A stretch of DNA of 64,000 nt from Actinomycetes bacterium (GTDB lineage Bacteria > Actinomycetota > Thermoleophilia > RBG-16-64-13), in assembly GCA_024637035.1 (NCBI GenBank), contig JAGXFW010000014.1, forward strand, positions 1 through 64,000. Direction: 5' to 3'. The translations under genes and the position numbers were made by a program. The number at the start of each line of letters is the position of its first letter. The first letter of the stretch is position 1. The notes beneath the pieces are model-generated. The model was given only the letters and a program-made list of their open reading frames with translations, searched no databases and had not been told where the DNA came from. Shown here one piece after another: positions 1 to 33,309 of this stretch.

Positions 1-1007
1 ACTTTGCTGTCGCCCTAACCACCCGCTACCCAGCAGGGCAGATAGTAGAAGTCGCTCATCTCGGCTACGGAGGCGGAGATCATGGCGAGTTCAGGCGCGC
101 CCACCGGAGCTGTGGCGTACGTCATGTCGAAGGTGGTGGTGCTGCTGCCATACATGACCGGAGCCCCCGGTCGGGTGGCCTGGGAGAGCACGATGCCGGA
201 AAGCACCTCGGCGTTGTGGGTGACCAGCGATCCGGAGAGGCTGATAGGTCCAGACGCTCCCGCCATGGCCATGGAGAGCACGTTCACCGGAACTTGGTGC
301 CGGGCTCCGTACATGATGGACTCGGTGGAAGCGGTGTGTAGTTGCAGAGGGCTCGTGGGGCACGTGTTCAGCGAGAAGAGGGGGCGCTCACGAAGGCTCT
401 CCCTGCTTCCCGCCACCGCGGAAGCCATCTCAACCAGGAGCTCCACGTGGGCGCCGCTGTTGGCCCCCATGTGGATGTGCTTCGTGGTGTTCCGCATGCA
501 CGTATCGAGCACATAGATATCGTGAGCGTGCTCGGGGGCGCCACCGGGGGTGAGGGCACGCTCATAGGTATTGGTCATGTCCATCGCGTCGCAGAGGCGC
601 GCGCTCTGGGCCAGGTCTTCTAGGGTGGAGTCGCGCAGTTCTCCGCTCTCGGGGTCGACGACCTTGGTGCCCTCGCCGAAGTTGGTGTAGCCCACGACTC
701 GGCCACCCATCAGGTAGTCGCGCTGCCCGTCCCGTGAGGCGAGAAGGATCTTGCCTGGGGCCGATGCGACAGCGTCTTCCACCACGCTCGCCGGGAAACG
801 GACCACGCTCGTGCTGCTATCCACGGTGCAGCCGGCCGCAGAGAGCACCTCGTGGGCCTCTTCACCGGCTACCTTGATCCCCACCTCGGAGAGCACCTCG
901 AGAGTCGCTTGGTGCACCGCTTCGCGGCCTTCTTGACTCAGCAGTTCGAAGCGGAGCATGGGGACTCCGGCGGCGTCGTCGCTCCGCGGCTTGTCTCTGA
1001 AGCTCAT
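1..1007 (-). CDS. mttB: Trimethylamine methyltransferase MttB, pyrrolysine type (cut by window edge)
   Basis: MttB transfers a methyl group from trimethylamine to the Co(I) corrinoid of its partner protein in the cytoplasm. The 330 residues visible before an in-frame TAG run from a typical MttB N-terminus to the motif CWVAGG. Blocks such as LVTHNAEVLSGIVL, YGSSTTTFD and TAPVGAPEL match the pyrrolysine-containing archaeal enzymes as I remember them. After TAG (15-17) the frame continues Gly-Asp-Ser-Lys to the window edge, matching the [Pyl]-S-D-[SA]-K context of MttB. The ATG at 1007 has a strong ribosome site (AAAGGAG, 7 bases upstream). It is the last gene seen of an operon that also holds mtbB and a corrinoid protein. 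Without amber decoding it would be a 330-residue fragment of a protein of roughly 490. The C-terminal third is outside the window. Confidence 0.93.
15..17 (-). other. In-frame amber codon of mttB, predicted pyrrolysine (residue 331)
   Basis: The TAG follows Trp-Val-Ala-Gly-Gly and precedes Gly-Asp-Ser-Lys in the same frame. This is the position of pyrrolysine in archaeal MttB (about residue 334, from memory). Reading it as a stop would remove the active-site residue and the C-terminal third of the barrel. Confidence 0.88.
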
Positions 1008-6969: not shown

Positions 6970-8373
6970 TCAGCCCGGTCCTATCTTCTCGCGCAGGCGC
7001 ACAACCGATGGGATCGACACCTCGAGCAGCGAAGCGATACGGGCCTTCGCCTCCAGACCGCGCGCCGCCTTCGGCATCGAGGTCAGCACCCCGATGTCGA
7101 GTTCCTCGCGCAGTTCCCTCATGGTCACCTCATCCGACAGCTCGCGTGTGCCTATATGGAGTTTCTCTGCCACATACGCCTTCGCCTCGGGGAGTCGCAT
7201 CTTGCGGTGGAGTTGCATCCTCGCGACCAGATCTCCGGCCGTACGGATGCCCCCCATCCCGGAGGCAAGCGCATGTGAGATGGGCATCCCGTAGGGATCG
7301 CCCGAACCCACCTATAATCCGTCGACGCGACCGATCGTCACCATCGCGACCGATGCCCGCGTGACCATACTTGTGGGCGGGGTCTCGCACATCGGCACGC
7401 CACCCACCCCGATGCCCACGTTCGCGTGGACTGGGATCGTGGCCGCCTCGGAACATGCCTTGACGAAGGTGACCGCGCGGGAGACGTTCCAGGCGGTGGA
7501 TCTGCGGGTGTTCGTATTCACGACCGGGCCGAAGATATGAGCCCCAGCCTTCTCGACCAGCTTGACCTGTTGGTGGGGGTAGAGGCCGGCGAGACGCACC
7601 CCGTCGTACGTCACCTTGCCGTGCATACCGAGCACGAACTCCGCCGCCATGCCCACTTCGATGGAGAGGTCGGTAGTGCGCGCCAACTCTTCCACGGCGT
7701 TGAGGGTGGCGAGGAACTCCGCGTCGCCGGCCGACGCCGTCGTATCGAAGTTGAAACCGTCGGCACCCACCTCGGCCATGCGCTTGCCGACATAGATCAT
7801 GTCGCGAGTGGACGCTTCGGCGGCCTCTTCCTGAGCTGATCGAGCTTCGTCGATCTTGCCCATAGGAAGGAGATCGGCCGGGTTGCCGAACGGACCGTCC
7901 GGGCGTGCGTACAGCGCCAAGTTGGGCATCGCTCCGTAGTACATGGGGATGATGGTGGTGTGCAGCACGCTCTCCATGGCCTGGAGTTCGAGTGCGATGA
8001 TCGGCTTGACCGGCTTGAACGAGTAGTCCGGGTGTCCGACTTCCATCGTATCCATGGCGAATGCCCGCTCGTACACCCTGATCGCCGACTCGCGGCTGAT
8101 GGGCACGCCGACCCCGCTTGAGCTCTGAGCGCCATAGAGCGCGTTCACCGAACCATCGTCGGTCAAGACCACTTCATCGCCCGGCACCACACCCACGATC
8201 TTCCCTTCGAAGGTGAAGAGATCGAGCAGGTAGTCCCGCTCCCCTTCACTGAGGGGTGGGATCTTGCCCCTGTCGGCAGCGTCTTCAGTGCCGGCGAGGA
8301 TATCGGCGCGGATCTCGTCCACGGTCATCTCGACCGCGTGACCGTCGCCCATGCGTGTGTAGACCTTCGTCAT
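6970..8373 (-). CDS. mtbB: Dimethylamine methyltransferase MtbB with in-frame amber (pyrrolysine)
   Basis: MtbB moves a methyl group from dimethylamine to a corrinoid protein. The frame reads 353 residues, TAG at 7312-7314, then 113 residues to TGA, giving 467 residues with pyrrolysine at 354. Archaeal MtbB is also 467 residues with Pyl at 356 (from memory). Before the amber are MtbB blocks such as HPDYSFKPVKPI, GAMPNLALY, GADGFNFDTTA and GVGGVPMCETPP. After it are GDPYGMPISHALASGM, AAGDLVARM-like and MRELREELDIG sequences that belong to the same family. The ATG at 8373 follows GGAGG. The GTG right after the amber has no ribosome site of its own, so an independent second protein is unlikely. 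It sits in one operon with mttB, the corrinoid protein and an ABC importer. Confidence 0.95.
7312..7314 (-). other. In-frame amber codon of mtbB, predicted pyrrolysine (residue 354)
   Basis: The TAG follows Gly-Arg-Val-Asp-Gly-Leu and precedes Val-Gly-Ser-Gly-Asp-Pro with no frame change. Sequence on both sides is MtbB-like and nothing is missing, so the codon is most simply read as an amino acid, as in methanogens. Confidence 0.93.
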
Positions 8374-20542: not shown

Positions 20543-21526
20543 TCACCGCACGCGCACCCCGGTGACCGGCTCGAGGCTGTGATCCCACAGGGCAGCAGTC
20601 GATCCGCCGACCCTCATGGAAAGTTCCGACCCCGCGACCACCTCGCCCACGCGTGCACCCGCCAAGCCCACAGCAGCCGCCCGCGACACCACATCCTCCA
20701 CGTCGGAGGGGCGCACGACGAGGAGGAAACCGCACCCGGGATAGGCTCCAAGCCAATCGAGCGCCCCCACTCCCTCAGGGCGCGGGAAGGCAGCCACGTC
20801 GACCAGCGCCCCCACCCCGGAACTCTCGAGCATCATCAGCGCGGTTCCGAGTAGGCCGGGATTGCTGACGTCTTTGCCCGCCACCACCAAGCCCGCCTCA
20901 GCGAGTTCGGGCAGTAGGGCGAGGCGCGCGCACACCTGTTCGGAGGGGCGCCACGATGTGGAATCCCAATTCGGGAATGGATCGTGCCACGCACCCTCCA
21001 CATCGACGACCAGCACCATCGAGTGACCGGGCAACGCACTGCAGCTCGGGATGAGGCGCGCCGCTGCGCCCAGTATCGCCACCGACAACGCCTTCCCCGG
21101 GCCATCCGGGTGCAGATGACCTCCGACCATAGGGATAGCGAAGTGCTTGGATCCGAACGCCAGCCCCCGGGCGACTTCTTCACGCCACAAGGAGTCCCCG
21201 CCGCCGAGGACGTTCACCATGGCCAGGGGGCGGCCCCCCATGGCGGCGATATCGTTGGCGTTGACAAGAACCCCGCAGTACCCGGCCCAGAACGGGTCTT
21301 CGAGCAGTTCCGTCGCAAGCCCATCAGCCGCCAGCAGCAGGTGGGTGTCTCCGAACGGGATAGGAGCCGCGTCCTCACCGAAGGCGACAGGCCACCCGTC
21401 GGGCACGAAGCCGGCGGACAGAGTCTCGACGACTGCCCCGATCGGCTGTTTCCGAGCGAGTGCGATCGAGTCGCTCAGAAGTCTGCGCACCTCCTCCGCG
21501 GAGGGCGGATCGCCCGTTGGTCTCAT
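20543..21526 (-). CDS. AIR-synthase-related protein (NitF/sll0787-like)
   Basis: A 327-residue protein of the PurM/ThiL/SelD superfamily, whose members use ATP to make acyl-phosphate or imidate intermediates. The N-terminal ATP-binding half has FGEDAAPIPFGD, the metal-binding segment VNANDIAAMGGRPLAMVNVL and GGHLHPDG; the C-terminal half has a GKDVSNPGLLGT motif. Together with the GNAT and the radical SAM gene upstream it matches the order of the Nit1C (MSMEG_0567/0568, sll0787) cluster as I recall it, which is linked to nitrilase and cyanide use. The nitrilase gene is not in this window. The ATG at 21526 lies in an ATGA overlap with a micro-ORF created by a tandem duplication. Confidence 0.75.
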   Translation of the reverse strand: MRPTGDPPSAEEVRRLLSDSIALARKQPIGAVVETLSAGFVPDGWPVAFGEDAAPIPFGDTHLLLAADGLATELLEDPFWAGYCGVLVNANDIAAMGGRPLAMVNVLGGGDSLWREEVARGLAFGSKHFAIPMVGGHLHPDGPGKALSVAILGAAARLIPSCSALPGHSMVLVVDVEGAWHDPFPNWDSTSWRPSEQVCARLALLPELAEAGLVVAGKDVSNPGLLGTALMMLESSGVGALVDVAAFPRPEGVGALDWLGAYPGCGFLLVVRPSDVEDVVSRAAAVGLAGARVGEVVAGSELSMRVGGSTAALWDHSLEPVTGVRVR

Positions 21527-21582
21527 GACGCCCTCGCCCCCTGCTCGCGCGAACTCATGACGCCCTCGCCCCCCGCTCGCGC
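21522..21582. repeat. 32-bp-period tandem duplication at the GNAT/AIR gene junction
   Basis: Two 29-base copies (21522-21550 and 21554-21582) differ at one base and are offset by 32 bases. Each contains the end of the GNAT gene and an ATGA. The first ATGA (ATG at 21558) opens an 11-codon frame that ends at 21523 with the same residues as the GNAT C-terminus (GARAS) and overlaps the true start of the AIR-synthase-like gene by ATGA. The duplication thus inserted a micro-ORF into a formerly direct coupling. Confidence 0.85.
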
Positions 21583-22022
21583 AATCTCACGTCGGGAGCT
21601 TTCATCAGCACGTGCGGCACCCCGGCGACGCCCTCCGTGGTCACAACGGTGACCCAGCCGAGCCGGTGGAAGAACCGCTCGTTGCGCACCTGCACCACGG
21701 CCAGGAACACCTGCGCTCCGCGCAGCGCCGCCTCACGCACGGCGTGTCTCACCAGCTCGAACCCGGCGGCCCCGCGATTGTCCGAACGCACCGCGAGCCG
21801 TCCGCCCACCCAGACGCCGGCGTCTCGTTCGTAGAGGCGCACGGTGCCAACGACCACCCCGTCGCACACGGCCACCAGGTGGACTGCCGAATGATCGTGC
21901 TCGTCCTGGTCGCAGTCGGCGAAGAGCTGCTGTTCGCCGCAAAAGACCTCACGCCTGATCGCGAAGGCTGCCTCCAGCTCCTCATGCCTGGCGGTGCGGA
22001 CCTCGAGGGCCACGGCGCTCAC
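21555..22022 (-). CDS. GNAT-family N-acetyltransferase (NitE/MSMEG_0567-like)
   Basis: A 155-residue GNAT protein. The conserved acetyl-CoA-binding core reads GGRLAVRSDNRGAAGFELVRHAV (middle of the protein; the R-x2-G-x-[GA] pyrophosphate loop is R-G-A-A-G here). FFHRLGW is the typical beta4-alpha4 ending. The FAIRREVFCGEQQLF block near the N-terminus is characteristic of the branch found in Nit1C clusters, from memory. The GTG start at 22022 forms a GTGA overlap with the radical SAM gene; the upstream in-frame extension lies inside that gene. Its acyl acceptor is unknown. Confidence 0.78.
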   Translation of the reverse strand: MSAVALEVRTARHEELEAAFAIRREVFCGEQQLFADCDQDEHDHSAVHLVAVCDGVVVGTVRLYERDAGVWVGGRLAVRSDNRGAAGFELVRHAVREAALRGAQVFLAVVQVRNERFFHRLGWVTVVTTEGVAGVPHVLMKAPDVRLRERGARAS

Positions 22023-23227
22023 ACCCCCGCGCCGTCGACAGCGACCGCAACAGGACGCACAGCCCCGAACTCCCCACAGACACCGCCGTCCGTGATCACC
22101 AACGGCTGGGACTCCCACTCAGGCAGAGCGGAACAGGCGGTACAGCGGCCGCAACCCGCCTTGATCCGCGACTGCGACAGGCCCGCAGCCCTCAATGCTC
22201 CGGCCGCCGCGGCGTATGCCTGCCTCATCAGATCCGCCGACGGGGTGGGATGGTGCTCCAAGAGCGATCCCGGCACCGGGCGGAAGGGCACGACGTGCGG
22301 GAACACACCCAACTCGGCCACCCTGCGCAAGCGACGCGCGGTGAGGCCGGGGTGCTCACCCAGTCCCATGATCACGTACGTGCTGACCTGACCGCGCCCG
22401 AACACCGCTACCGCCTGACGCCACGACTCCACATAGCCCCTCCATCCGATCTCGGCCTTGGTCGGCGCCACCCAGGCCAAAGTCCGCGGGTCCAGGCTCT
22501 CGATGTGCAGGCCGACGGTATCCACGCCCGCGGATCGCAATACCTCGAACGCAGCGGGATCACGCGGCGGCCTGAGCTGCACTCCCACCGGGAGATCGAC
22601 CGACTCCTTGAGAGCCCGCGTGCACGACGCTAGATGGGCCAGTTCCTCGCCCCCGTCCTCGGTGCAGCCGGTGGTCAGCACCACGTGAGACGCGAGCCCC
22701 CGAGCAGCGGCCACAGAGGCCACCTCGACCAGTTGCTCGGCGCTCTTGCGCGCGACGGTGCGACCGTCGCGCAAGCTCGCGCCGATCGCGCAGAAGCGAC
22801 AGGCACGAGCGGTACTCCAGAACACGCACGTCTGGATCACCGTGGACGCCAGACAATCGCCGCCGTGTATCAGCGCGACGTGCCCATAGCTGACGCCGTC
22901 ACTGGTGACCATATCCGCGAAAGGATCAGCGGGCAGGACGTCGACCGAAAACGGGCCGCGACCATGCCCATGCAGGACGGTTCCACCGGCGCCGACCACA
23001 AGGCGATACGCGGCCTGGGCCCCTCGGACCACGGGCACCGAGACCACCCTTCCGTCCACCAAGAGCGTGAGCCCCTGAGCCGGTCCGGCTCCTCCTCTGC
23101 GTATGGCAGGCGGAGCGGCGCCCGCGGGGTCGCCGGACCCGAGTTCGAGGCCCTGTTGCCCAGATTCGACGAAGACCCCACTGCTCTGCAGTTCCTCTTT
23201 CAGCAGGCGCCACTCAGCCGCGAACAT
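22019..23227 (-). CDS. Radical SAM protein (NitD/MSMEG_0568-like) with unusual CX8CX2C motif
   Basis: A 402-residue radical SAM enzyme. The likely cluster-binding cysteines are in TCVFWSTARACRFCAIG, a CX8CX2C arrangement rather than CX3CX2C. The barrel includes TTGCTEDGG and VGVQLRPP, and GLHIESLD further on. A second cysteine set near the C-terminus (AGCGRCTACS) could hold an auxiliary cluster. The layout resembles the MSMEG_0568 family of Nit1C clusters. It is coupled to the amidotransferase-like gene upstream (TGATG at 23227) and to the GNAT gene downstream (GTGA). The reaction is unknown; oxidative modification of a nitrogenous small molecule for the nearby acetyl- and ATP-dependent enzymes is a guess. 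Confidence 0.8.
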   Translation of the reverse strand: MFAAEWRLLKEELQSSGVFVESGQQGLELGSGDPAGAAPPAIRRGGAGPAQGLTLLVDGRVVSVPVVRGAQAAYRLVVGAGGTVLHGHGRGPFSVDVLPADPFADMVTSDGVSYGHVALIHGGDCLASTVIQTCVFWSTARACRFCAIGASLRDGRTVARKSAEQLVEVASVAAARGLASHVVLTTGCTEDGGEELAHLASCTRALKESVDLPVGVQLRPPRDPAAFEVLRSAGVDTVGLHIESLDPRTLAWVAPTKAEIGWRGYVESWRQAVAVFGRGQVSTYVIMGLGEHPGLTARRLRRVAELGVFPHVVPFRPVPGSLLEHHPTPSADLMRQAYAAAAGALRAAGLSQSRIKAGCGRCTACSALPEWESQPLVITDGGVCGEFGAVRPVAVAVDGAGV

Positions 23228-24462
23228 CAGCCCGCCTCCCGAAGAGAGCGGCCGCGAGAAAGATCAGCCTGCACGCCCCTGAAGTAACCGTTCAAGAACA
23301 GTGCTGCCATGCTGCTCAATTCTGGGAAGAGCACCGATGCGACGTCCCGCCCCTCGATGGGATCCGCGAGGCAGCCCTTGAGCCGGCGAAGCAGGGCACC
23401 CACGCATGCGGCGGATTCCTCGAGCCGCGTCACCTCCCCGGGTCGATAGAGCCCCACGATGTCGCTCCCCCGCGCGCCATGGGGCAGGCGTCGCCACACG
23501 GCATCGAGGAACTCAGGGATCTTCCCCGGATCGTAGTACTTGTGGCCGAGCAGCCAGATTGCAGATGACGATTCGAGCGAGAAGGCCACGATCCTCGCTT
23601 CACCCACCAGAGCCCGGAAGGCACCGTCGAGCAGATGCGGGGCCGGCTCCACCGCCGACTCCCGTGTGCCCGAACCTCGAGGCGACTCCCGCTCGATGAG
23701 GCGGCCCAGCATCGCGTTCGCTCGGGGGAAACCAGGATGCTCGAGGTGGGGTGCGAAGGCGCACAGCGTGCCCGAGCCCCTCCTCCTGGTGAAGCCCGCG
23801 GAGCCGCCGACGAGCATGCGGGAAGCCAAGGTCTCGTCTACCAAGAACAAGGTGTCCGGGCAGAAGGAATCGAAGCGGGCCAACTCGACCTCGTTCGACG
23901 AGAGGACCATCGGAGGGCCGCCGTACAGGGGAGCGTCGACGAGCTCCTCCGAGCCGCCAAGGTCCGTATCGCACACCGCGAAGCGCACGCGCTCCCTCAC
24001 CGGGTGCAACGCGTACCGGCCACCGTAGGCCGTGGCGGCCTTCTGTGGCAGCGCGCGGATCGGCGGCAGGTGATGGACGATGTTGTCGGCAGTGACATCC
24101 GTGAACGTGAAGGGCTCAAGGGGTTCGTACTCTATGCGCATGATCAGGTACGCTCCGGCACAGAACCCTACGTACAGTCCGCCCTCGTCGACGAACTGCC
24201 CGATGGCCGCAGCGCCCTCCGCTCCCATGCCGAGCGCCATGGCGACCGGATCGCCGCCACCCACGGCGAACGCGTCCACGGAGTCGAGGGCCCCGGTCCT
24301 CACCGCCGATTCGTCGAACACGGCCACACGCGAGAACCCCAGCCGTTCCAAGCAGTCGACCAACCACGTCCACGAGTGCGACGCCCCCGCACCGCCGTAC
24401 ACCCCCACGCCGAGGTCGGCGAGTCGTACTTCAGCGGTGCGCCGCTCAGTACGACGAGCCAC
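23227..24462 (-). CDS. Class I glutamine-amidotransferase-like protein (BPL_N-type)
   Basis: A 411-residue protein whose first half resembles the biotin-protein-ligase N-terminal (BPL_N) amidotransferase-like fold. It begins with LGVGVYGGAGASHSW, continues with a DAFAVGGGDP loop, and has the nucleophile-elbow-like GLYVGFCAGAYLIM, with Cys in the position of the GATase nucleophile. The second half (about residues 250-411) is not one I recognise; it contains GHKYYDPGKIPEFLDAVW and an all-helical C-terminus. The GTG start at 24462 follows GAGGGG. It is tightly coupled to the radical SAM gene. It could supply ammonia or hydrolyse an amide, but a glutaminase partner is not obvious. Confidence 0.65.
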   Translation of the reverse strand: MARRTERRTAEVRLADLGVGVYGGAGASHSWTWLVDCLERLGFSRVAVFDESAVRTGALDSVDAFAVGGGDPVAMALGMGAEGAAAIGQFVDEGGLYVGFCAGAYLIMRIEYEPLEPFTFTDVTADNIVHHLPPIRALPQKAATAYGGRYALHPVRERVRFAVCDTDLGGSEELVDAPLYGGPPMVLSSNEVELARFDSFCPDTLFLVDETLASRMLVGGSAGFTRRRGSGTLCAFAPHLEHPGFPRANAMLGRLIERESPRGSGTRESAVEPAPHLLDGAFRALVGEARIVAFSLESSSAIWLLGHKYYDPGKIPEFLDAVWRRLPHGARGSDIVGLYRPGEVTRLEESAACVGALLRRLKGCLADPIEGRDVASVLFPELSSMAALFLNGYFRGVQADLSRGRSLREAG

Positions 24463-24465
24463 GTG

Positions 24466-25824
24466 TCACCCCTCGACCGGCGCTTCCGAGGGCGCCGCCG
24501 AGGGCGCCGCAGAGGGCGCCTCGACTTCGGTCGGCACCTCAACGGCGCCTTCGCCATCGGCCTGCGCCGCAGCCGCGACATCCACGCTCGTGCCGCCTAT
24601 CGCCGCGGACACCAGTTCCGTGAGATCCATCATCCGCAGGGCGGAACCCGCACCTGTCATGCCCACCTGCAGCCCTTGGTAGCAGAAGGGACACGTCGAG
24701 ACGAGAGCCTCGGCGCCGGTAGCCTCCGCTTCCTTGATGCGGGCGTGCGAGATACTGCCCTGAAGGCCGGGGTACGCGGCCTTGACGCCGCCCCCCGCGC
24801 CGCAACACCGGCTGTTCTCCTTGATGCGCTCCATCTCCCTGAACTCGAGGCCCGGGATCTGACCGAGCACCTTCCGCGGGGCCTCGAACACCCCGGCGTG
24901 CCGTCCGAAGTGACACGGGTCGTGATAGGTCACCACCAGCGGCACCTCGGTGTCGAGCGTGAGGGCGCCCTCCTCCAAGAGCCGCAGCAGGTACTGCGAC
25001 ACGTGGAGCACTTCGAAATCGAGCTCGCCCACCTTCGGGTAGTCCCGGCCGATGGTCTTGAAGCACCCGGAGCATGAGGTGACGAGCGTCTTGATGCCCA
25101 GCCCGTTGAACTGCTCGATGTTCTCCTTCGCCCGCTCTTCGAAGCGGTCGAGCATCCCCACCCGACGCATGGTGCTGCCGCAACAGCGTTCAGCCTGACC
25201 GAGGATGGAGAAGTCGATGCCCGCCTTCTGGAGCACCTTCGTGGTGTTGATCGCGACCTGCTTGAGGTTCATGTCGAACGACGCGGTGCACCCCACGAAC
25301 AGAAGCACTTCCGACGTGCCCGGGGCAGCCGTCGCCACCTTCGCGATCTCGGCGTTCTTGCCCTTGGCGGCGCGGACAGCCCACCTATCGCGCGAACTGC
25401 GGGGTTGCTGCCAGGGGTTGTCGTACTCGGCGATGTTCCGGTAGAGGGCCTCGTGCGGAGGCAACGGCCCTTCCCCGGCGGCGGCGAACACCGCACGCAC
25501 GCTCTCCCACAGGTCCATGGTGTCGATACCTGTGGGGCACACGAAGTGGCACTGGCCGCAGGTGGTGCACTGATAGAGGTCTTCCTTGAGTCGGGCGAAC
25601 TCGTCGTCGGACAGCGGAGGTCCGGAGACCAAGCGCGAGAGAAGACCGCCTTCGCCGCCGCGAAGCCGACGCAACGACCGCGACCTGCCTCTGGGCGTCA
25701 CCTCCTCGCGCTGCTCGATCTCGTAGACGGGGCACCAGTTCGTGCACTCGCCGCAGCGCACGCACGCGTCGAGTTCCAGACCCTGCTTCCAGCTCAGGAT
25801 CGACCAATCCATGTCGCGGGTCAT
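24466..25824 (-). CDS. HdrD-like iron-sulfur protein (heterodisulfide-reductase type)
   Basis: A 452-residue cytoplasmic iron-sulfur protein. Two 4Fe-4S motifs lie in the N-terminal part (CVRCGECTNWCPVYE near residue 18, CTTCGQCHFVCPTG near 85). Two CCG domains follow: VGCTASFDM with CCGSTMRRVG and TSCSGCF, then HDPCHFGRHAG with CCGAGGGVK and CPFCYQ. This is the architecture of HdrD, GlpC and DsrK. The last 25 residues are an acidic Ala/Pro/Ser/Glu tail. It is coupled by ATGA to a membrane cytochrome b gene, giving an HdrDE-like pair that would exchange electrons between a cytoplasmic thiol/disulfide or other donor and the quinone pool. The real heterodisulfide substrate is unknown; CoM/CoB need not apply. 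Confidence 0.85.
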   Translation of the reverse strand: MTRDMDWSILSWKQGLELDACVRCGECTNWCPVYEIEQREEVTPRGRSRSLRRLRGGEGGLLSRLVSGPPLSDDEFARLKEDLYQCTTCGQCHFVCPTGIDTMDLWESVRAVFAAAGEGPLPPHEALYRNIAEYDNPWQQPRSSRDRWAVRAAKGKNAEIAKVATAAPGTSEVLLFVGCTASFDMNLKQVAINTTKVLQKAGIDFSILGQAERCCGSTMRRVGMLDRFEERAKENIEQFNGLGIKTLVTSCSGCFKTIGRDYPKVGELDFEVLHVSQYLLRLLEEGALTLDTEVPLVVTYHDPCHFGRHAGVFEAPRKVLGQIPGLEFREMERIKENSRCCGAGGGVKAAYPGLQGSISHARIKEAEATGAEALVSTCPFCYQGLQVGMTGAGSALRMMDLTELVSAAIGGTSVDVAAAAQADGEGAVEVPTEVEAPSAAPSAAPSEAPVEG

Positions 25825-26573
25825 ATCGCCTCGCTTCTCTCGCGTGCCGTCGCCGCCGCGAGCGACATCTCGATCGGCGCGGTGAGCATGTGCACCATCT
25901 TGCTGTACGGGATGTACGCAAGGAACGCCAACGACGCCAGGCCATGCACATAGAAGAGGGTCATCGGGCTCTCCACCCCGGGGAGGTCGGCCACCCACGT
26001 GAACGCCGCGCCCGCGAATGCCCATTCGGCTGCCGGCTGCGCGCCTCCGGCAAGCCTGACGCCCTCCGCGGCAAAGCCCGTGAGTGAGACGCCGAGTAGG
26101 AACCATAGAGCGACTGCGTCATCAGCCAGGGTCTCGAGCTGGGCCGTGCGCACCACGTACCGCCTGATCAAGGCGACCACGATCCCGGCGAGCAGCACCA
26201 GCCCCCACACGTCGCCCCACACGTTGAGCAGCGCGTGACCGTCAGACCCCTCGAAGAAGACGGCGACCGAACTTCCCGCGGGTACGAACCAGTCGAGCAC
26301 CATCAGCAACAGACTCTCCACGAAGAGCAGAACGAACCCCCAGAAGATGGCCATGTGCATGGCCCAACGTACGAGACTCTGGCGCCGGATCGTGCTTTGG
26401 AACAGCACCCGCGAGACGACGGCGCGAGCCAGAGCGCCCCGGTCGAGAGCGGAATGCCACGAGGGAGCCTTCCCCTGTCGCCAGATCATCACGCGGGCGG
26501 CCACGCCCACTGCCATGACGATGAGGGCCACCGTGGCCAGAGTGTAGAAGAGGATCGAATGCGTGTAACCCAC
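25821..26573 (-). CDS. HdrE/NarI-like membrane cytochrome b subunit
   Basis: A 250-residue integral membrane protein with five predicted segments (starting near residues 6, 72, 122, 165 and 210). Histidines in WHSALDRGA and in RWAMHMAIFWGF are candidate heme ligands, as in NarI/HdrE. The GTG at 26573 follows AGGAGG. It overlaps the HdrD-like gene by ATGA and is therefore its probable membrane anchor, linking it to menaquinone. The assignment is at family level; DsrM and GlcF-associated anchors look similar. Confidence 0.78.
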   Translation of the reverse strand: MGYTHSILFYTLATVALIVMAVGVAARVMIWRQGKAPSWHSALDRGALARAVVSRVLFQSTIRRQSLVRWAMHMAIFWGFVLLFVESLLLMVLDWFVPAGSSVAVFFEGSDGHALLNVWGDVWGLVLLAGIVVALIRRYVVRTAQLETLADDAVALWFLLGVSLTGFAAEGVRLAGGAQPAAEWAFAGAAFTWVADLPGVESPMTLFYVHGLASLAFLAYIPYSKMVHMLTAPIEMSLAAATARERSEAI

Positions 26574-26582
26574 GTCGCCTCC

Positions 26583-27848
26583 TCAGACCACACGCGGGGA
26601 CAACACCCCGGTCACAGCCGCTGTCACATCGGAAAACCCCTCGGCATCCAGAGTCATCCCTGTCCCCAGCCGGACGGCTTCCAGCAGATCCTCCAGGCCG
26701 GGCGAGTCGCTCGCAGCCAGGAACGCGGGGCAGACCCCGAGCACGTAGCCGGCGCGCGTCCGCTCATCGGGACCGCCGGGCGTGACCTCCTGGGCGATCG
26801 TCGCCGCAGGGTCTGCGTCCACAGCGGCGAGGCCGTCGGCGGCCGTGGTCGTGCCGGCGGCAACTGCCCGAGCGGCGGCGGTCATCGGGTGCAACCCGCG
26901 CCGAGCGACGCCCTCGAACAGGCGTCCGGCTTCCTCGGGTGAGAACCCGCCCCGGAACAGGGCGAGTACAGCCTCCGCGTCCGTGAGCAAACACCCGGGC
27001 TCCGCCACGTCGGTCGAAGCCATCTCCTGGGCCGGTTCGTTGTATTTGACATAGGTGAAGCACCGGCAGGGGCACGAGAAGCACCCCTTGCTTCTATGAA
27101 CGGCCGGCGCGAGCCACTCCTCGCAGGCGGCCGCGTCGGGGGCTCCGCCCAACAGTCCCTGGATCACGTTCGCGGGTAGCCCGGCGGATGTCACGGCCTC
27201 GCCCATGGCCAGCGAATGTTCGAACAGGTCTTCCGCCTCTTCGGCATCGAGGATCCCCAAGCCCCGCATGGCCACGGCTTTGACGTTCTTCGCGCCGAGA
27301 GCGGCGCCGAACCCGTGCGCGTCGGCGGTGCCCCAGTAGTTGGCCACCAGCTGCGCCGCGGGCGCTCCGTGCTCGCCCGCCGGACCCACGGCCAACACTT
27401 GGATAACCTCGTCGCCCTTGGCTGTCTTGATAGCGTCGCTCGTCTGCCAAGTATCGAGTCCCCACAACTGCGAGGCGTCCTCGAGAGCCGCGATGCCGTC
27501 GTGGAGCCAGAGGTACACCGGTGAGGGCGATTCCCCCACGATCACCACGGCGTCGAAGCCCGAGTACTTCAACTCGCTCCCCATGAACAGGGTGAGCGGG
27601 CTGTGCAGCGGGACCCCGTCCTCGCCGAGTCGGCTGATCACGCCCAAGGAAGCCCCCGGGGTCAGTGTGCCGGTGAGCGGCCCGGTGGCCAGCACGACGG
27701 GGTCACGGTCGGCGTAATCGGCGAGAAGGCGTTCGGCAAGGGCAACGCCGCCGATGACCTCTTCCACCAGATCGTCGGCGAAGGATCCTGCGTTCGTCGT
27801 GCCCGCCGTGAGGTCTACCATGAGTATGTGTTCCGCATAGAGATACAT
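26583..27848 (-). CDS. Shortened aldehyde:ferredoxin oxidoreductase (tungsten, AOR family)
   Basis: A 421-residue AOR-family protein; standard AORs are about 600-650. The N-terminal domain follows AOR (VDLTAGTTNAG, ATGPLTGTLTPG, GSELKYSGFDAVVI, FGAALGAKNVKAVAMRG). The 4Fe-4S ligands C256-x2-C259-x3-C263 are present with an extra C261, and the distal ligand is probably C373 in YVLGVCPAF. About 180 residues of domains 2 and 3 are missing between and after these. The ATG at 27848 lies one base after the ferredoxin gene. The pair with the ferredoxin and HdrDE-like genes implies aldehyde or carboxylate redox chemistry linked to the membrane. Whether the shortened protein still holds a tungstopterin is uncertain. 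Confidence 0.78.
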   Translation of the reverse strand: MYLYAEHILMVDLTAGTTNAGSFADDLVEEVIGGVALAERLLADYADRDPVVLATGPLTGTLTPGASLGVISRLGEDGVPLHSPLTLFMGSELKYSGFDAVVIVGESPSPVYLWLHDGIAALEDASQLWGLDTWQTSDAIKTAKGDEVIQVLAVGPAGEHGAPAAQLVANYWGTADAHGFGAALGAKNVKAVAMRGLGILDAEEAEDLFEHSLAMGEAVTSAGLPANVIQGLLGGAPDAAACEEWLAPAVHRSKGCFSCPCRCFTYVKYNEPAQEMASTDVAEPGCLLTDAEAVLALFRGGFSPEEAGRLFEGVARRGLHPMTAAARAVAAGTTTAADGLAAVDADPAATIAQEVTPGGPDERTRAGYVLGVCPAFLAASDSPGLEDLLEAVRLGTGMTLDAEGFSDVTAAVTGVLSPRVV

Positions 27849-27849
27849 G

Positions 27850-28197
27850 TCAGGCCTCCTCTGCCACACGGATCGCCCCAGCCATGCACGCCCGCGCGCA
27901 TGGAGCGGGATCGCACCCATCGCACGGGGGCCGCAAGAGGATGGGCTTGCCACCTGGTGAACTGTCCTCCACCGGTTCGCCCTGTCTGCGCACCTGAACC
28001 CCATCGGGTCGCGCCGCCACGAGATCGTCTTCGGTCTTGTACAGCAGACCGAAGTAGTTGTTCTTCTCCTCGGCACGGTAGAGCAGGATGCTCGACGACG
28101 TGACCGTGTAGCCCTCGTCGCGGTAGTGCCCGCAGGCTATCTCGCACCGACCGCACCCGTTGCAGAGGAGAGGGTCGATCTGCAGGTGAGTCGTCAT
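27850..28197 (-). CDS. Small 4Fe-4S ferredoxin-type electron carrier
   Basis: A 115-residue protein with cysteine groups CNGCGRCEIACG near the N-terminus and CDGCDPAPCARACMAGAI near the C-terminus, i.e. a HycB/AorA-like di-cluster ferredoxin with a 60-residue insert between the groups. The ATG at 28197 forms an ATGA overlap with the arginase-like gene. Directly upstream of the AOR-like gene, it should be its electron-transfer subunit. Confidence 0.85.
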   Translation of the reverse strand: MTTHLQIDPLLCNGCGRCEIACGHYRDEGYTVTSSSILLYRAEEKNNYFGLLYKTEDDLVAARPDGVQVRRQGEPVEDSSPGGKPILLRPPCDGCDPAPCARACMAGAIRVAEEA

Positions 28198-29465
28198 CGG
28201 GGAACCTCCCAATCGGAGTGAGCGGACGCAAATAGGGGGGACGGTGTGAGGGTGCGCAGGAGGCGCCGAAGGAGCCGGGCGGCAAGAAGGACGCCGGGAT
28301 CAACCGCGACCCCGCCCAATCGCTCCATGCTTCGCACGTCGAACTCCATGAGGTCGACGCCGACCAGACGCGCCTTCGATAGCACTCCGGCGGCCGTTTC
28401 CTCGATCAAGCGCTCGAGCGTCGCCGCGTCCAACCCGGTGCGGTCGCGGAACCGCACCGCCCGCGTGGCGACGTTCGCCCCCACGTCGAGGTCGATCGAG
28501 ACGTACACGTGGCCGGCCTTCGAGCCGGACAGCGCCCACGCAACCCTGGCGGGGTTGGTAGCGATCTCGTCTCGGGTGAGCACCGTGACGCCCCGCTTGC
28601 GCAGGGCGGAGTAGGCAGCCACATACTCCTGGATCCGGGAGTCGTCGATCTTGCGGGCCCGGCTGGGCGGAGTGTCTGCCACGCCCACCAGATAGAGGTT
28701 GCGAGGATCGACCGTGCCCTCGTCGATCAGGTGGTGAAGGAAGGTACTCGCGTTGTACGAGTCGGGCCGATCGCGAAGTAGCGGGTCGGCGGCATCGTAC
28801 CTCGACCCCGGGTTCGTCTCCGCGTCGTAGTGCACGGCGCCCGCTGTCGCCGTGGTCGGGATGGCGTCGGTGTGGGCGTCGAGCACGATCACGGCAAGGT
28901 CTTCCGCGCCGTGGCGCCGCGAGAGAGCGCGCAACACGCCTCCGGTGAGCGAGTGGTCCACCCCCACCATGACGGGCACGGCAGGCAGGACGGTGCTCTC
29001 GACGAACGCCTCGACCGCTTCGGCCAGACGGAGGCAGCCTCCGTCATCGACGAACCGGGCGAACGCCGTTTCCGCGATCGCCTCCCGGTGTTCCGGTCCC
29101 GGCGTAGGCGACAGCCAGGCCCATTCCCCTGGCGCTGCGGTCCGGTCGACCGCGATCGAAGCACCTCCGATGACAGGCCCAGGGCCTCTGGCGGCAGCAC
29201 CTCCGGCGGCAGGCGCTTGCCCATGGGAGGCTGCTGCTCCTTGGGCGGCCGCTACCCCTTCGGCGGCCCCGACTCCCGCAGCAGCCGCGAGAGCACCGAG
29301 CAGATCCACCGGGTCCCTGCCGGCATCGATCCAGGCATGCTTCGAACGTACGGCCGCGGTCCGCTCGTCGGGGTCGGCCATGGCACCGAACAACACGGCG
29401 ACAGGCGATTTCGCTCCCTGCCCGGAGCCGGTGCCGGGCGGCTTCTCAGCGAGAGAAGAAGTCAT
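28194..29465 (-). CDS. Arginase/agmatinase-fold (ureohydrolase) family protein
   Basis: A 423-residue protein with the binuclear-manganese motifs of the ureohydrolase family. GVDHSLTGG supplies the first His, VLDAHTDA the D-x-H-x-D group and VSIDLDVGAN the final D-x-D. The family consensus after the last motif is D-P, here V-G. The N-terminal 110 residues carry a Gly/Ala-rich segment absent from typical agmatinases (about 300 residues). It could hydrolyse a guanidino compound or an amide such as formylglutamate. Its place between a methyltransferase fusion and an AOR module is unusual and suggests a specialised substrate. The start was taken at the ATG at 29465, which overlaps the upstream gene by 20 bases. 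Confidence 0.75.
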   Translation of the reverse strand: MTSSLAEKPPGTGSGQGAKSPVAVLFGAMADPDERTAAVRSKHAWIDAGRDPVDLLGALAAAAGVGAAEGVAAAQGAAASHGQAPAAGGAAARGPGPVIGGASIAVDRTAAPGEWAWLSPTPGPEHREAIAETAFARFVDDGGCLRLAEAVEAFVESTVLPAVPVMVGVDHSLTGGVLRALSRRHGAEDLAVIVLDAHTDAIPTTATAGAVHYDAETNPGSRYDAADPLLRDRPDSYNASTFLHHLIDEGTVDPRNLYLVGVADTPPSRARKIDDSRIQEYVAAYSALRKRGVTVLTRDEIATNPARVAWALSGSKAGHVYVSIDLDVGANVATRAVRFRDRTGLDAATLERLIEETAAGVLSKARLVGVDLMEFDVRSMERLGGVAVDPGVLLAARLLRRLLRTLTPSPLFASAHSDWEVPR

Positions 29466-31815
29466 CCCTCGCCTTCCGAAGCTGCCGCACGTTCTCGAGC
29501 GGTGACCGCGGCGCGATGCCGCAACCCGGCGTCAAGAAATGCGTTCCCGCCTCGAGCGCCGCGATCGATTCATCGTAGACTTCCTCGGGCGTCCCCATGA
29601 ACATGGTGGTGGCCGTTGCCACGTTGCCGAACACGGCAACACCCGCCCGCTCGGCGACCTCCACCGCGTACTTCATGTCGGCCTTCTCCTCGATGCTGAT
29701 ACCGGCCACGCCGGTATCGCACATGAGTGGCACGATCTTGTCCGTGTTCGCGCAGATGTGCAGAACCAGCGGGCCGTCGACGGCGGCCGCTACCTCCGTG
29801 ATCACGGGCTTCACGAACCGCTCCCACGAGCGCGGGCTCATCAGCGCGGGGCCCGATGACGGCTCGGCCATCACGAAGTAGTCGGCGCCTTGAGCGAACG
29901 CCCACTTGATCACGTCGATCATCGCATTCTTCGTGACCTCGAGCACCTGCTGCACCTTCTCCGGCTCCTTGGCCGTCCACCTCATGAACTGTTCGGTGCC
30001 GACCAGGTTGGCGGCGCAGGTGAACGGTCCCTCGGTCTCCCCGTAGACGGCGTATTCCTCGCCCACCCGATCCTTGAGTATGCGGAACTGCTCCTCGAAC
30101 ATGGGGAAGCGGCCGCGGGTGAGGAAGTCGGCGGGGTAATCGAGGGCATCCAGGCCCTCCGCGAGCGGGTGGCCCTTGATCGAGTACTGCATGTCGATCC
30201 TTGGCTCTCCGAGGGCACAGCCGAAGGCCTCACTCATGGGCACGATGTCCCAGCCCATCGCCTTGACCCACTCGAACCCGGCGTGCTCGACGCCGGCGAG
30301 CGCCAGCGTGGCCATGGCCACCGGGTCGGTGTCGGCGAGCGGCCGCGCGGCGCCACAGGCCTCCATCAGATCGACCATGCCATAGGTGGTAGTACATCCC
30401 ACCGGGGTCTTGTCCACCGCCCGGCCGGCCAATCGCTCGAGGACACGTTCCTTCGGCTTCATGGTTCTGCCTCCCTTCGAAACCTTGCCGAGACCCGATT
30501 CACCCGCCAGGGCTTCGTCGATCAACTCCGTCAGGTCGCGCACCGGCGTGCCGTGGCCCACCCGTTTCGCTCCCTCACCCAGGTTGTTGCGACAGAACGG
30601 ACAGATGGTGACCATCTCCTGCGCGCCGGTCTCCTCACCCTCCGCGATGCGCTTGGCCGCGTTCTTCGTGGCCCACTCGCCGAAGCCGGTCATCACCCCG
30701 CCGCCGCCGCCGCAGCAGTAGGAGTTGGCGCGAATGCGCACCATCTCGCGCAGTTCGACGCCGGGGATCGCCTCGAGAAGAGCGCGAGGAGCGTCATACA
30801 CGCATTCGGCGTCGTCCTGCCCCAGGTAGGCGCCCGGGTACTGGGTCGAGCCGTCTTCGTCGACGGAGAAGGCAGCCATGTGCCGCCCGGTGTGACACGG
30901 GTCGTGGTAGGTGACTACCCGGGGTTCGACGGCCTGAAGGTCGAGGTCGCCTTCCTGCAGCAGGCGATGGAAGTAGTCCACCACGTGCACCACCTCGATG
31001 CCTTCCATGGCCTCCTCGTAGCCGACGGCGAGGGCGTAGTCCTTGTGCAAGGCGCGGAAGCAACCCGCGCACGAGGTGACGATCGTCTCCACTCCCTGGT
31101 CGCGGTGCAGTCGCTGGAACGTCTCGAGGTTCGCCTCGGCAAGGCGCTTGAAGGTGTCCACCTCGCCCAGGCGCATGGCCGTGGAACCGCAGCAGAGTTC
31201 GTCCTCGCCGAGGATGCCGAAGTCTATGCCGAGCTTGTTGAACACGGAGGCCGTCGCGGTGGGCATGACCCGGCCCGCCTGGTTATAGGCGCCCGTGCAG
31301 CCGACGAAGTAGAGGATCGGGGCCGCTTCCTTCTGGATATCCTTGATCGGCTTGGACCCCTTGCGGAATGCGCGGGTCCAGTCGGTCCTCACCCTGCGGG
31401 GCCCTTGGTACGGATTGCTGTACGTGGCGATCGACTGCGCGATGATCTTGTGGCTCGGGAGTGGTCCCACCCCTTGCTCGACCGCCCGCCTGCGCATCGC
31501 CTCGATCATCTCGATGATCACCGGCTTGTGGTCGAGTTGACACTGGTTCTGGCACCCGCCGCAGAGGGTGCACTTGTAGATTGCGTCCACGAGGTCTTGA
31601 TCGAGCTCGAGTTCGCCGGTCAGGATGCCGCGGGCGAAAGCGATCTTGCCCTTGGAGGCCATGTAGCCTTCGAACCCGAACTCCGTGCCGGCGGGGCAGA
31701 TGTCGGCGTTCGTGGCCGGCGGTCCGTAGTCGTAGGCGGTCTTGCAGGTGCCGCACGCGGTGCAACGCCACACCGAGTGCTCCAGTTCTTCCAGTGTCGG
31801 AATGTTCCAGTCCAT
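29446..31815 (-). CDS. Fusion of HdrD-like iron-sulfur protein and MtaA/MtbA-type zinc methyltransferase
   Basis: A 789-residue two-part protein. Residues 1-440 are HdrD-like: CTACGTCKTAYDYGP and CTLCGGCQNQC, then CCG domains with VGCTGAYNQ, CCGSTAMRLG, TSCAGCF, HDPCHTGRH, CCGGGGGVM and CPFC. Residues 452-789 form a uroporphyrinogen-decarboxylase-fold methyltransferase of the MtaA/MtbA type. The zinc ligands are H686-x-C688 and C765, with 76 residues between the cysteines, the same spacing as His237, Cys239 and Cys316 of MtaA (from memory). The ATG at 31815 follows GGAGG. No stop separates the two halves, yet a complete ribosome site and ATG precede the second half. It should take methyl groups from a corrinoid protein; the acceptor thiol or pterin is unknown. 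Confidence 0.85.
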   Translation of the reverse strand: MDWNIPTLEELEHSVWRCTACGTCKTAYDYGPPATNADICPAGTEFGFEGYMASKGKIAFARGILTGELELDQDLVDAIYKCTLCGGCQNQCQLDHKPVIIEMIEAMRRRAVEQGVGPLPSHKIIAQSIATYSNPYQGPRRVRTDWTRAFRKGSKPIKDIQKEAAPILYFVGCTGAYNQAGRVMPTATASVFNKLGIDFGILGEDELCCGSTAMRLGEVDTFKRLAEANLETFQRLHRDQGVETIVTSCAGCFRALHKDYALAVGYEEAMEGIEVVHVVDYFHRLLQEGDLDLQAVEPRVVTYHDPCHTGRHMAAFSVDEDGSTQYPGAYLGQDDAECVYDAPRALLEAIPGVELREMVRIRANSYCCGGGGGVMTGFGEWATKNAAKRIAEGEETGAQEMVTICPFCRNNLGEGAKRVGHGTPVRDLTELIDEALAGESGLGKVSKGGRTMKPKERVLERLAGRAVDKTPVGCTTTYGMVDLMEACGAARPLADTDPVAMATLALAGVEHAGFEWVKAMGWDIVPMSEAFGCALGEPRIDMQYSIKGHPLAEGLDALDYPADFLTRGRFPMFEEQFRILKDRVGEEYAVYGETEGPFTCAANLVGTEQFMRWTAKEPEKVQQVLEVTKNAMIDVIKWAFAQGADYFVMAEPSSGPALMSPRSWERFVKPVITEVAAAVDGPLVLHICANTDKIVPLMCDTGVAGISIEEKADMKYAVEVAERAGVAVFGNVATATTMFMGTPEEVYDESIAALEAGTHFLTPGCGIAPRSPLENVRQLRKARDDFFSR
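30460..30475 (-). promoter_or_regulatory. Internal ribosome site and ATG for the methyltransferase half
   Basis: GAAGGGAGG on the minus strand stands 6 bases before an in-frame ATG (30462) exactly where the MtaA/MtbA-like domain begins. The 338-residue product from this ATG would have the normal length of a free methyltransferase. It may allow both a fused and a separate protein to be made. Confidence 0.65.
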
Positions 31816-31866
31816 CGTCCCTCCAAGCGCCGGGGTCCCCCCGACGGTCACGGTCGGCTGCCTCCG

Positions 31867-33309
31867 TCAGATCCCGAGCTTGCCGGGGTTCATGATGTCG
31901 TTCGGGTCGAGCAGGTGCTTGACCCGTTTCAGCAGATCCAGATAGCCGGGATGCACCCGCTTGTTGATCTCTATGGCGAAATCCACGGGCGGCTTGTACG
32001 GGATACCGCCGTGCTCGAGGTCCACCTTCAGGCACTCGACGATCGCGTGCCGGGCGTTCTCGATGGCTTCCGGCGTCTCCTTGCTGAAGGGGATCATCGC
32101 CCGGAGCATGCCGTAGTGGACGCCCCGATACATGCTCATGCGCACCGCGGGCGACAGGTTGTGATCGATGAGGATGCGCTTCCAATCCGTGTACACCGGC
32201 GCCCACTTCTTGGCGGGCGTGAACGTGCCCGGCCACGAGATACCGGCGCCCCCTTCCTTGCAGTAGTTCTTGGTGGAGCCGACGATCTGGCTGGGCAGTT
32301 CCGTGCGTGCCCGAAGGGCTTCCTCGGGGTACTCGGTGACCTTGAGCGACGTGCCCTTGGCCTGTTCCTCGTCGACAACCATCTGCCAGATCTCTTCCTT
32401 CGCCTCGCGCTCCTTCTCGGTCCACGAGGTGGTGTTCGCGAAACTGAAGAACTCGGGCGCCCCATCCGGCTTCGGCCGATAGGGCGAGGGGATCGGCACC
32501 TGCGAGAGCCACCAGGAGACAGCGGTGAGATCGTCGCAGATCTCGTACTTGCTGAGGTTGAGCATGTAGGAGTACATGTCGTGCACGTCGGCGCACGACA
32601 CGGTGAACACTTTCAGCAGCGGCGGGGTCGGGTGTACGCCGATGCCCAGCTTGGTGATGACGCCGCTGGAGCCGAGCCAACCTTTGAACAGGCCGTCGAG
32701 TTGCGGGAGTGGTAGGAGACTGTGCCAAGCTTCCCCGTTGATAGCGCACGACCCCACACGCACCAGCTCGCCGGTGGGGAGGACCACCTCCATGCTGGTG
32801 ATCTCCTGGCTGTTCAGACCGTAGCGGGCGTTGAGGCCCCCGATGCCGTGCGAGATGGCACATGAAGCCACCGAGGCCGACGGAGGGCCCACCGGCCAGC
32901 CGAAGCGCAGATCGAACACCTGGAGCGCCTCGGCCAGCATGGCGTGGGTGACCCCTGGCTCGATGACCGCGTAGTGCGCCTCGTCGTCGATCTCGATGAT
33001 GCGGTTCATGCGCTTCAGATCCATGAGGATCCCGCCGCGCTCGGGGATGCACAGGCCGCCGATGTTCGTGCCGGCGGTGTAGGGCACAACCGGGATCTTC
33101 TCGCGGTTCGCGAGCCGCATGATCGCTTGGATCTGCTCGACGGTGGTCGGCATGACCACGAAGTCGGGCAGTTTCGGCAACACGAACGACATGTCGTACG
33201 AGTATGCGTAGCGCACGTGTTTGGCAGAACTCGCGCTCGCTTCGCCCACTATTTCTCTGAGCTCATCGATGATCGACGTGCCGTCGATGGTGTCGACGGG
33301 GCTGGTCAT
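31867..33309 (-). CDS. FAD-linked oxidase (GlcD/4-cresol dehydrogenase family)
   Basis: A 480-residue flavoprotein of the PCMH/VAO superfamily. The FAD-binding half includes VVPYTAGTNIGGLCIPERGG (a pyrophosphate loop) and ASVASCAISHGIGGLNARYG. The C-terminal half ends with the family hallmark LDPNDIMNPGKLG. In GlcDF and related enzymes such a protein oxidises 2-hydroxyacids and passes electrons to a CCG iron-sulfur partner; the next gene, 51 bases away, encodes exactly such a partner (the HdrD-like half of the fusion). It begins the long redox operon; its promoter should lie in the 140 bases up to 33450. Substrate unknown. Confidence 0.85.
   Translation of the reverse strand: MTSPVDTIDGTSIIDELREIVGEASASSAKHVRYAYSYDMSFVLPKLPDFVVMPTTVEQIQAIMRLANREKIPVVPYTAGTNIGGLCIPERGGILMDLKRMNRIIEIDDEAHYAVIEPGVTHAMLAEALQVFDLRFGWPVGPPSASVASCAISHGIGGLNARYGLNSQEITSMEVVLPTGELVRVGSCAINGEAWHSLLPLPQLDGLFKGWLGSSGVITKLGIGVHPTPPLLKVFTVSCADVHDMYSYMLNLSKYEICDDLTAVSWWLSQVPIPSPYRPKPDGAPEFFSFANTTSWTEKEREAKEEIWQMVVDEEQAKGTSLKVTEYPEEALRARTELPSQIVGSTKNYCKEGGAGISWPGTFTPAKKWAPVYTDWKRILIDHNLSPAVRMSMYRGVHYGMLRAMIPFSKETPEAIENARHAIVECLKVDLEHGGIPYKPPVDFAIEINKRVHPGYLDLLKRVKHLLDPNDIMNPGKLGI

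What the first reader, a model, noticed from the sequence alone, without database searches (positions are those of the whole stretch)
29446..31815. HdrD-MtaA fusion: heterodisulfide-reductase module joined to a corrinoid-dependent zinc methyltransferase
One frame joins an HdrD-like protein to a complete MtaA/MtbA-type methyltransferase with zinc ligands at the same spacing as MtaA. In methanogens these two act on opposite sides of the thiol CoM. The fusion suggests methyl transfer directly tied to thiol/disulfide redox chemistry, perhaps a bacterial CoM-like cofactor. I know of no described protein of this kind.
Basis: partly seen in the sequence, partly recalled or inferred. Interest (0 to 1): 0.85.

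Follow-up and report, generated by a model that had tools for sequence, protein, structure and literature searches.

The report
Two neighbouring genes merged in-frame
One open reading frame really does join an iron-sulfur (HdrD-like) electron-transfer protein to a zinc methyltransferase (MtaA type), but in all 15 related gene clusters found the two are separate genes, so this looks like a recent, lineage-specific merger (or a one-base sequence error) within a conserved, still uncharacterised methyl-metabolism cluster rather than a new coupled enzyme.

Summary
In detail: 29446-31815(-) is one uninterrupted frame, aa 1-440 a two-ferredoxin/two-CCG HdrD-like protein, aa 452-787 a full MtaA with the H-x-C...C zinc site at MtaA spacing. 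Fifteen Desulfobacterota clusters hold ~65%-identical homologues of both halves, all as separate genes, normally with a transporter in between. No second fusion was found in 399 genomes of the class, 396 of the phylum or 60 relatives. The MtaA half keeps its own GGAGG ribosome-binding site and ATG inside the frame; the 13-residue linker is predicted disordered; one extra G in a GGG run would end the first gene where its homologues end. Best reading: two operon genes that became contiguous and in-frame after loss of the intervening transporter. The HdrD-like half is the partner of the FAD oxidase encoded just upstream. It carries all ten HdrB/HdrD-type CCG cysteines (E. coli GlcF and GlpC do not), so thiol/disulfide chemistry stays possible. 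No ComA homologue was found; acetyl-CoA synthase and an MtrH-type methyltransferase are present, which favours folate. The conserved cluster is more interesting than the fusion.

The parts
30496..31815 (-). HdrD-like half (aa 1-440): two [4Fe-4S] ferredoxin sites (C18,21,24,40; C82,85,88,92) and two CCG sites (C173,208,209,249,252; C307,367,368,405,408)
30463..30501 (-). 13-residue linker ESGLGKVSKGGRT, predicted disordered (pLDDT below 50 at 438-450); homologous HdrD proteins end within a few residues of its start
30470..30474 (-). GGAGG ribosome-binding site 7 nt upstream of the MtaA ATG, inside the open frame
30503..30505 (-). GGG run where one more G would give the HdrD half the ending ...DEALAG-stop, the place homologues stop
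29446..30462 (-). MtaA half (aa 452-789) with zinc ligands H686, C688, C765
31867..33309 (-). FAD_binding_4 oxidase (GlcD / p-cresol methylhydroxylase / D-lactate dehydrogenase superfamily), 71-82% identical to the gene directly upstream of HdrD in Desulfobacterota; presumed redox partner of the HdrD half
28194..29465 (-). arginase (ureohydrolase) family gene; follows MtaA in most related clusters
27850..28212 (-). small Fer4 ferredoxin-like gene, conserved in the related clusters (divergent strand there)
26583..27905 (-). AFOR_N (aldehyde ferredoxin oxidoreductase N-terminal domain) protein, conserved in the related clusters
23227..24462 (-). BPL_N domain gene, conserved in the related clusters
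22019..23227 (-). MSMEG_0568-family radical SAM protein; also downstream in L054 and L061
20543..21526 (-). AIR synthase-like protein (sll0787 family); also in L054 and L061

Best explanation
This is part of a conserved catabolic gene cluster (FAD oxidase, HdrD-like Fe-S protein, transporter, MtaA, arginase-like protein, ferredoxin, AFOR_N) shared with Desulfobacterota and probably acquired by horizontal transfer. In this genome the transporter between the HdrD-like gene and mtaA is gone, the two genes abut, and the stop codon of the first is lost, so the frame runs through a short disordered linker into MtaA, which keeps its own ribosome-binding site and ATG. The cell would make a read-through fusion and probably free MtaA as well. 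Each half is expected to work as it does in the separate proteins. The HdrD-like half takes electrons from the upstream FAD enzyme, which oxidises a small hydroxy-acid- or alcohol-like substrate. The MtaA half moves a methyl group between a thiol/thioether sulfur bound at zinc and a corrinoid protein, the carbon ending on folate and in the acetyl-CoA pathway. Shown: the frame, domains, metal ligands, the separate genes elsewhere, the internal SD/ATG, presence of MtrH and acetyl-CoA synthase. Inferred: transporter loss as the cause, independent action, free MtaA synthesis, substrates, direction of methyl transfer.
For: Separate genes in 12 loci plus 3 more genomes, always HdrD upstream and MtaA 0.4-5.7 kb downstream. 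L053 shows the transporter loss part-way: MtaA lies 427 bp after HdrD, with only the last 56 codons of LivF left between them and HdrD still ending in TAA. Internal GGAGG-7nt-ATG, as good as nearly any start in the window. Linker pLDDT below 50 beside a well-folded MtaA half. FAD gene directly upstream of HdrD in all 12 clusters that hold both. His-Cys-Cys zinc set, which PMC10418091 ties to S/Se methyl transfer. In L071 the same MtaA sits in a full corrinoid system with MtrH, a second URO-D protein, corrinoid protein and RACo activator. CdhC and MtrH present in this genome, ComA not found.
Against: Only one sequence of this junction is at hand, without reads or transcripts. The coding-potential score of the linker is low but within the normal range (about the 18th percentile), so it does not prove a former intergenic origin. 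The substrate and methyl acceptor are unknown. If the fused protein were highly expressed and free MtaA absent, tethering could matter.
Confidence: 0.72

Rival explanations
1. Sequence or assembly error: a one-base deletion in the GGG run hides the true stop, and the organism has two ordinary genes about 33 nt apart.
For: One extra G gives ...DEALAG-stop, matching homologue ends such as ...DMALPD-stop and ...DRALPGK-stop; MtaA keeps its own SD and ATG. All homologues are separate.
Against: Frame analysis of the main coding strand over about 46 kb shows no other clear frameshift signature, and the full-length MttB copies in the genome have intact frames apart from pyrrolysine TAGs, so the indel error rate is low; G3/G4 runs are easy to sequence.
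Confidence: 0.16
2. A purposeful bifunctional enzyme: the HdrD half reduces or forms a disulfide of the same thiol that the zinc MtaA half methylates or demethylates.
For: All ten CCG cysteines of the disulfide-active HdrB type are present and conserved, unlike EtfD (PMC13083937) or E. coli GlcF/GlpC. The closest named family of the HdrD half is TfrB, the CoM/CoB thiol:fumarate reductase subunit. The MtaA zinc site is of the sulfur type. Both genes share the cluster.
Against: Never fused elsewhere; internal SD and ATG retained; disordered linker; no ComA homologue; HdrD's constant partner is the FAD oxidase, and other clusters (L071, L072, L082) carry the same MtaA with no HdrD or FAD gene in the stretch held.
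Confidence: 0.1

Closest known systems
MtaA / MtbA (methylcobamide:CoM methyltransferase, 4ay7) and bacterial SCMT-like proteins (Mlps, PMC10418091)
   Same: Full-length URO-D fold aligned end to end with 4ay7 (E=2e-69), His-Cys-Cys zinc site
   Different: Bacterial; no ComA found in the genome; in a cluster with FAD oxidase, HdrD-like and arginase-like genes; fails the strict MtaA equivalog cut-off (307 of 400 bits)
HdrD / HdrB / TfrB CCG proteins
   Same: Two ferredoxin-type sites and two complete CCG sites (ten cysteines)
   Different: Paired with a GlcD-like FAD protein rather than HdrE or HdrA; below every curated cut-off (TfrB 167 of 385, HdrB 44 of 345)
GlcDEF / GlpABC / EtfD oxidoreductases
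   Same: FAD-linked oxidase next to a CCG Fe-S protein; electron-transfer role
   Different: GlcF, GlpC and EtfD each lack one or more of the ten CCG cysteines that are present here
type 1 mlp gene clusters (Kountz and Balskus, PMC10418091)
   Same: URO-D sulfur/selenium methyltransferases with corrinoid protein and reductive activase in anaerobes
   Different: These clusters add FAD oxidase, HdrD-like, arginase-like, AFOR_N and MMSDH-type aldehyde dehydrogenase genes; Mlp subclass not tested

Membership tests
MtaA/CmuA methyltransferase family | Scores above the family model over full length | tested here: met
   TIGR01463 254 bits vs 235.4 cut-off; PRK06252 291 vs 244
MtaA/CmuA methyltransferase family | His-x-Cys...Cys zinc ligands | tested here: met
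   H686, C688, C765; motifs conserved in all 20 MtaA rows
MtaA equivalog (CoM methyltransferase proper) | Above the equivalog cut-off | tested here: not met
   NF040654 307 of 400 bits
MtaA equivalog (CoM methyltransferase proper) | Coenzyme M is the methyl acceptor | tested here: inconclusive
   No ComA homologue (PF02679) found in the genome; other CoM routes not searched, acceptor not assayable here
HdrD/HdrB disulfide reductase | Two complete CCG sites (C..CC..CxxC, ten cysteines) | tested here: met
   C173,208,209,249,252 and C307,367,368,405,408; invariant in 13/13; GlcF and GlpC fail the same test
HdrD/HdrB disulfide reductase | Above the curated Hdr or TfrB cut-off | tested here: not met
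   TfrB 167.5 of 385, HdrB 43.9 of 345 bits
HdrD/HdrB disulfide reductase | Heterodisulfide reductase activity | not testable with these tools
   needs an assay
GlcDF-type FAD/Fe-S oxidoreductase | Adjacent FAD_binding_4 partner gene | tested here: met
   window 31867-33309 and directly upstream of HdrD in the related clusters
Conserved fused HdrD-MtaA family | Fused architecture in independent genomes | tested here: not met
   0 of 15 homologous clusters; none in 399 class, 396 phylum or 60 relative genomes

The most novel reading that the evidence does not exclude
The fused protein is real and selected: the HdrD half reduces a disulfide of a small thiol other than CoM, with electrons from the upstream FAD oxidase, and hands the thiol to the zinc site of the tethered MtaA for methyl exchange with a corrinoid protein; that is, a bacterial thiol/disulfide-coupled methyl-transfer cycle whose parts also occur as separate proteins in Desulfobacterota.
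Probability: 0.07. Interest if true: 0.8.

Novelty: new variant of a known kind. Interest (0 to 1): 0.36.

Why it matters
The fusion itself is probably an accident of gene order and shows how operon neighbours become joined. The value lies in the cluster: an FAD oxidase, a disulfide-type HdrD-like protein and a sulfur-type zinc methyltransferase are encoded together in at least 15 Desulfobacterota and in one genome of another lineage (FAD protein 71-82% identical), with no described function found in the literature searched. Finding its substrate would place an unrecognised methyl-sulfur or methylated-compound pathway in anaerobes.

Tried and rejected
Fusion as a conserved family: rejected, no second case. 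Chance frame: rejected, both halves are 58-69% identical to real proteins. HdrD half as a plain GlcF: weakened by the ten-cysteine test. MttB as the dedicated upstream methyltransferase of the cluster: unlikely, 12 of 17 genomes with the cluster or its MtaA have no MttB match. ComA: not found. Codon-usage test of the linker: not decisive. Multiple alignment A1 misplaced the C-terminal part of the HdrD rows, so the model is weak there and at the N-terminus; HdrD conservation was taken from a separate alignment. Literature searches for an HdrD-MtaA fusion or this cluster gave nothing matching. The benzene 'Magic' cluster (PMC13101534) also pairs GlcD-like and Hdr-like proteins, but its Hdr-like protein lacks conserved cysteines in two motifs and nothing shows it to be the same cluster.

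Full report
OBSERVATION. The frame 29446-31851 on the minus strand is open throughout; the likely start is ATG 31815, giving 789 aa. Pfam places Fer4_8 at 17-93, two CCG domains (first 167-256), and URO-D at 454-784. NCBIfam places the second half in the MtaA/CmuA subfamily above its cut-off, and the only PDB relative at E<=1e-5 is the methylcobalamin:CoM methyltransferase 4ay7 (E=2e-69). The zinc ligands are H686, C688 and C765.

IS THE FUSION A FAMILY? In the window's own genome and 60 relatives no other frame matched both halves, nor in 399 genomes of the class or 396 of the phylum. A scan of one genome per species returned 33 loci, nearly all titled as Desulfobacterota or deltaproteobacterial MAGs, 58-69% identical. 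Twelve hold both halves, always as two genes, HdrD first and MtaA 427-5666 bp later. Three more genomes of one Desulfobacterota family show the same.

HOW THE JOIN AROSE. In the separate-gene clusters an MFS or a LIV-type ABC transporter usually lies between HdrD and MtaA. In L053 only the last 56 codons of LivF remain there, HdrD still ends in TAA, and MtaA follows 427 bp later: the loss of the transporter caught part-way. In the window the gap is gone. The MtaA half starts at an ATG preceded by GGAGG at 7 nt, one of the better starts in the window. Homologous HdrD proteins end within a few residues of the DLxELIDxAL motif; here the frame continues ESGLGKVSKGGRT-M. One more G in the GGG run at 30503-30505 would restore a stop right after DEALAG. 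Whether that is a real mutation or an error cannot be settled without reads. A frame analysis of the main coding strand over about 46 kb shows no other clear frameshift signature, so I favour a real change (roughly 5:1, a judgement). AlphaFold2 gives a well-folded MtaA half, a partly modelled HdrD half and a linker with pLDDT below 50 at residues 438-450: no sign of a built joint, although the alignment was weak for the HdrD half.

WHAT THE HALVES DO. The HdrD-like gene lies directly after an FAD_binding_4 oxidase in the related clusters. The window's FAD protein is 71-82% identical to those and resembles D-lactate dehydrogenase and, over nearly its full length, p-cresol methylhydroxylase. That argues for a GlcD/GlcF-like oxidoreductase pair. 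But the CCG sites are complete: all ten cysteines are present in 13 of 13 proteins. E. coli GlcF lacks two of them and GlpC one; mycobacterial EtfD lacks one and completes a cluster with histidine, which its authors call non-catalytic (PMC13083937). So the site is of the HdrB/HdrD type and disulfide chemistry cannot be excluded. The curated scores for HdrB and TfrB are nonetheless far below cut-off.

The MtaA half has the His-Cys-Cys zinc set that PMC10418091 assigns to sulfur/selenium substrates. In other Desulfobacterota the same MtaA sits with MtrH-like, second URO-D, corrinoid, RACo activator and DUF6951 genes (L071), and in L066 directly before a corrinoid protein. It is thus one methyltransferase of a corrinoid system; the methyl group probably ends on folate, because this genome has an MtrH-family protein and acetyl-CoA synthase and no ComA homologue was found. 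Use of MtaA-type enzymes with folate in acetogens is from my own knowledge and was not checked here.

PATHWAY. The clusters also carry an aldehyde dehydrogenase that scores above the methylmalonate-semialdehyde dehydrogenase cut-off (one such gene lies elsewhere in this genome), an arginase-family protein, and in L054 and L061 the radical SAM and AIR-synthase-like genes seen at 20.5-23.2 kb of the window. I infer import of a small methylated compound, removal of its methyl group through corrinoid, and oxidation of the carbon skeleton by FAD/HdrD and the aldehyde dehydrogenase. The substrate is not known.

VERDICT. Real frame, correctly described domains, unsupported leap from frame to mechanism. 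Most likely a lineage-specific merger of operon neighbours; next most likely a one-base error; least likely a dedicated coupled enzyme.

Noticed in passing
window 7312-8373(-) and 15-1007(-); L116 (G000 contig C33): Pyrrolysine system in this genome: MtbB and MttB frames stop at TAG about where pyrrolysine sits, and the genome has PylS, a tRNA-Pyl (CUA) and a radical SAM gene that looks like PylB, next to another MtaA-like gene. Sixteen MttB-family matches in all.
   Followed up: partly
window 24466-26573(-): A second ten-cysteine HdrD-like protein directly follows a NarI/DsrM-type cytochrome b gene: a better candidate for an HdrDE-like membrane complex than the finding itself, and a possible quinone outlet for its electrons.
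   Followed up: partly
L071 2698-10178, also L067, L069, L072-L075, L082: Desulfobacterota corrinoid cluster with a second URO-D protein, corrinoid protein and the finding's MtaA, and in L071 also MtrH-like, RACo activator, DUF6951 and arginase-like genes; substrate unknown.
   Followed up: partly
window 20543-24462(-): MSMEG_0568-type radical SAM, MSMEG_0567-type GNAT, sll0787-type AIR synthase-like and BPL_N genes in a row, shared in part with the Desulfobacterota clusters.
   Followed up: no
L053 9321-9804: Remnant of LivF (last 56 codons) between HdrD and MtaA, an intermediate stage of transporter loss.
   Followed up: yes
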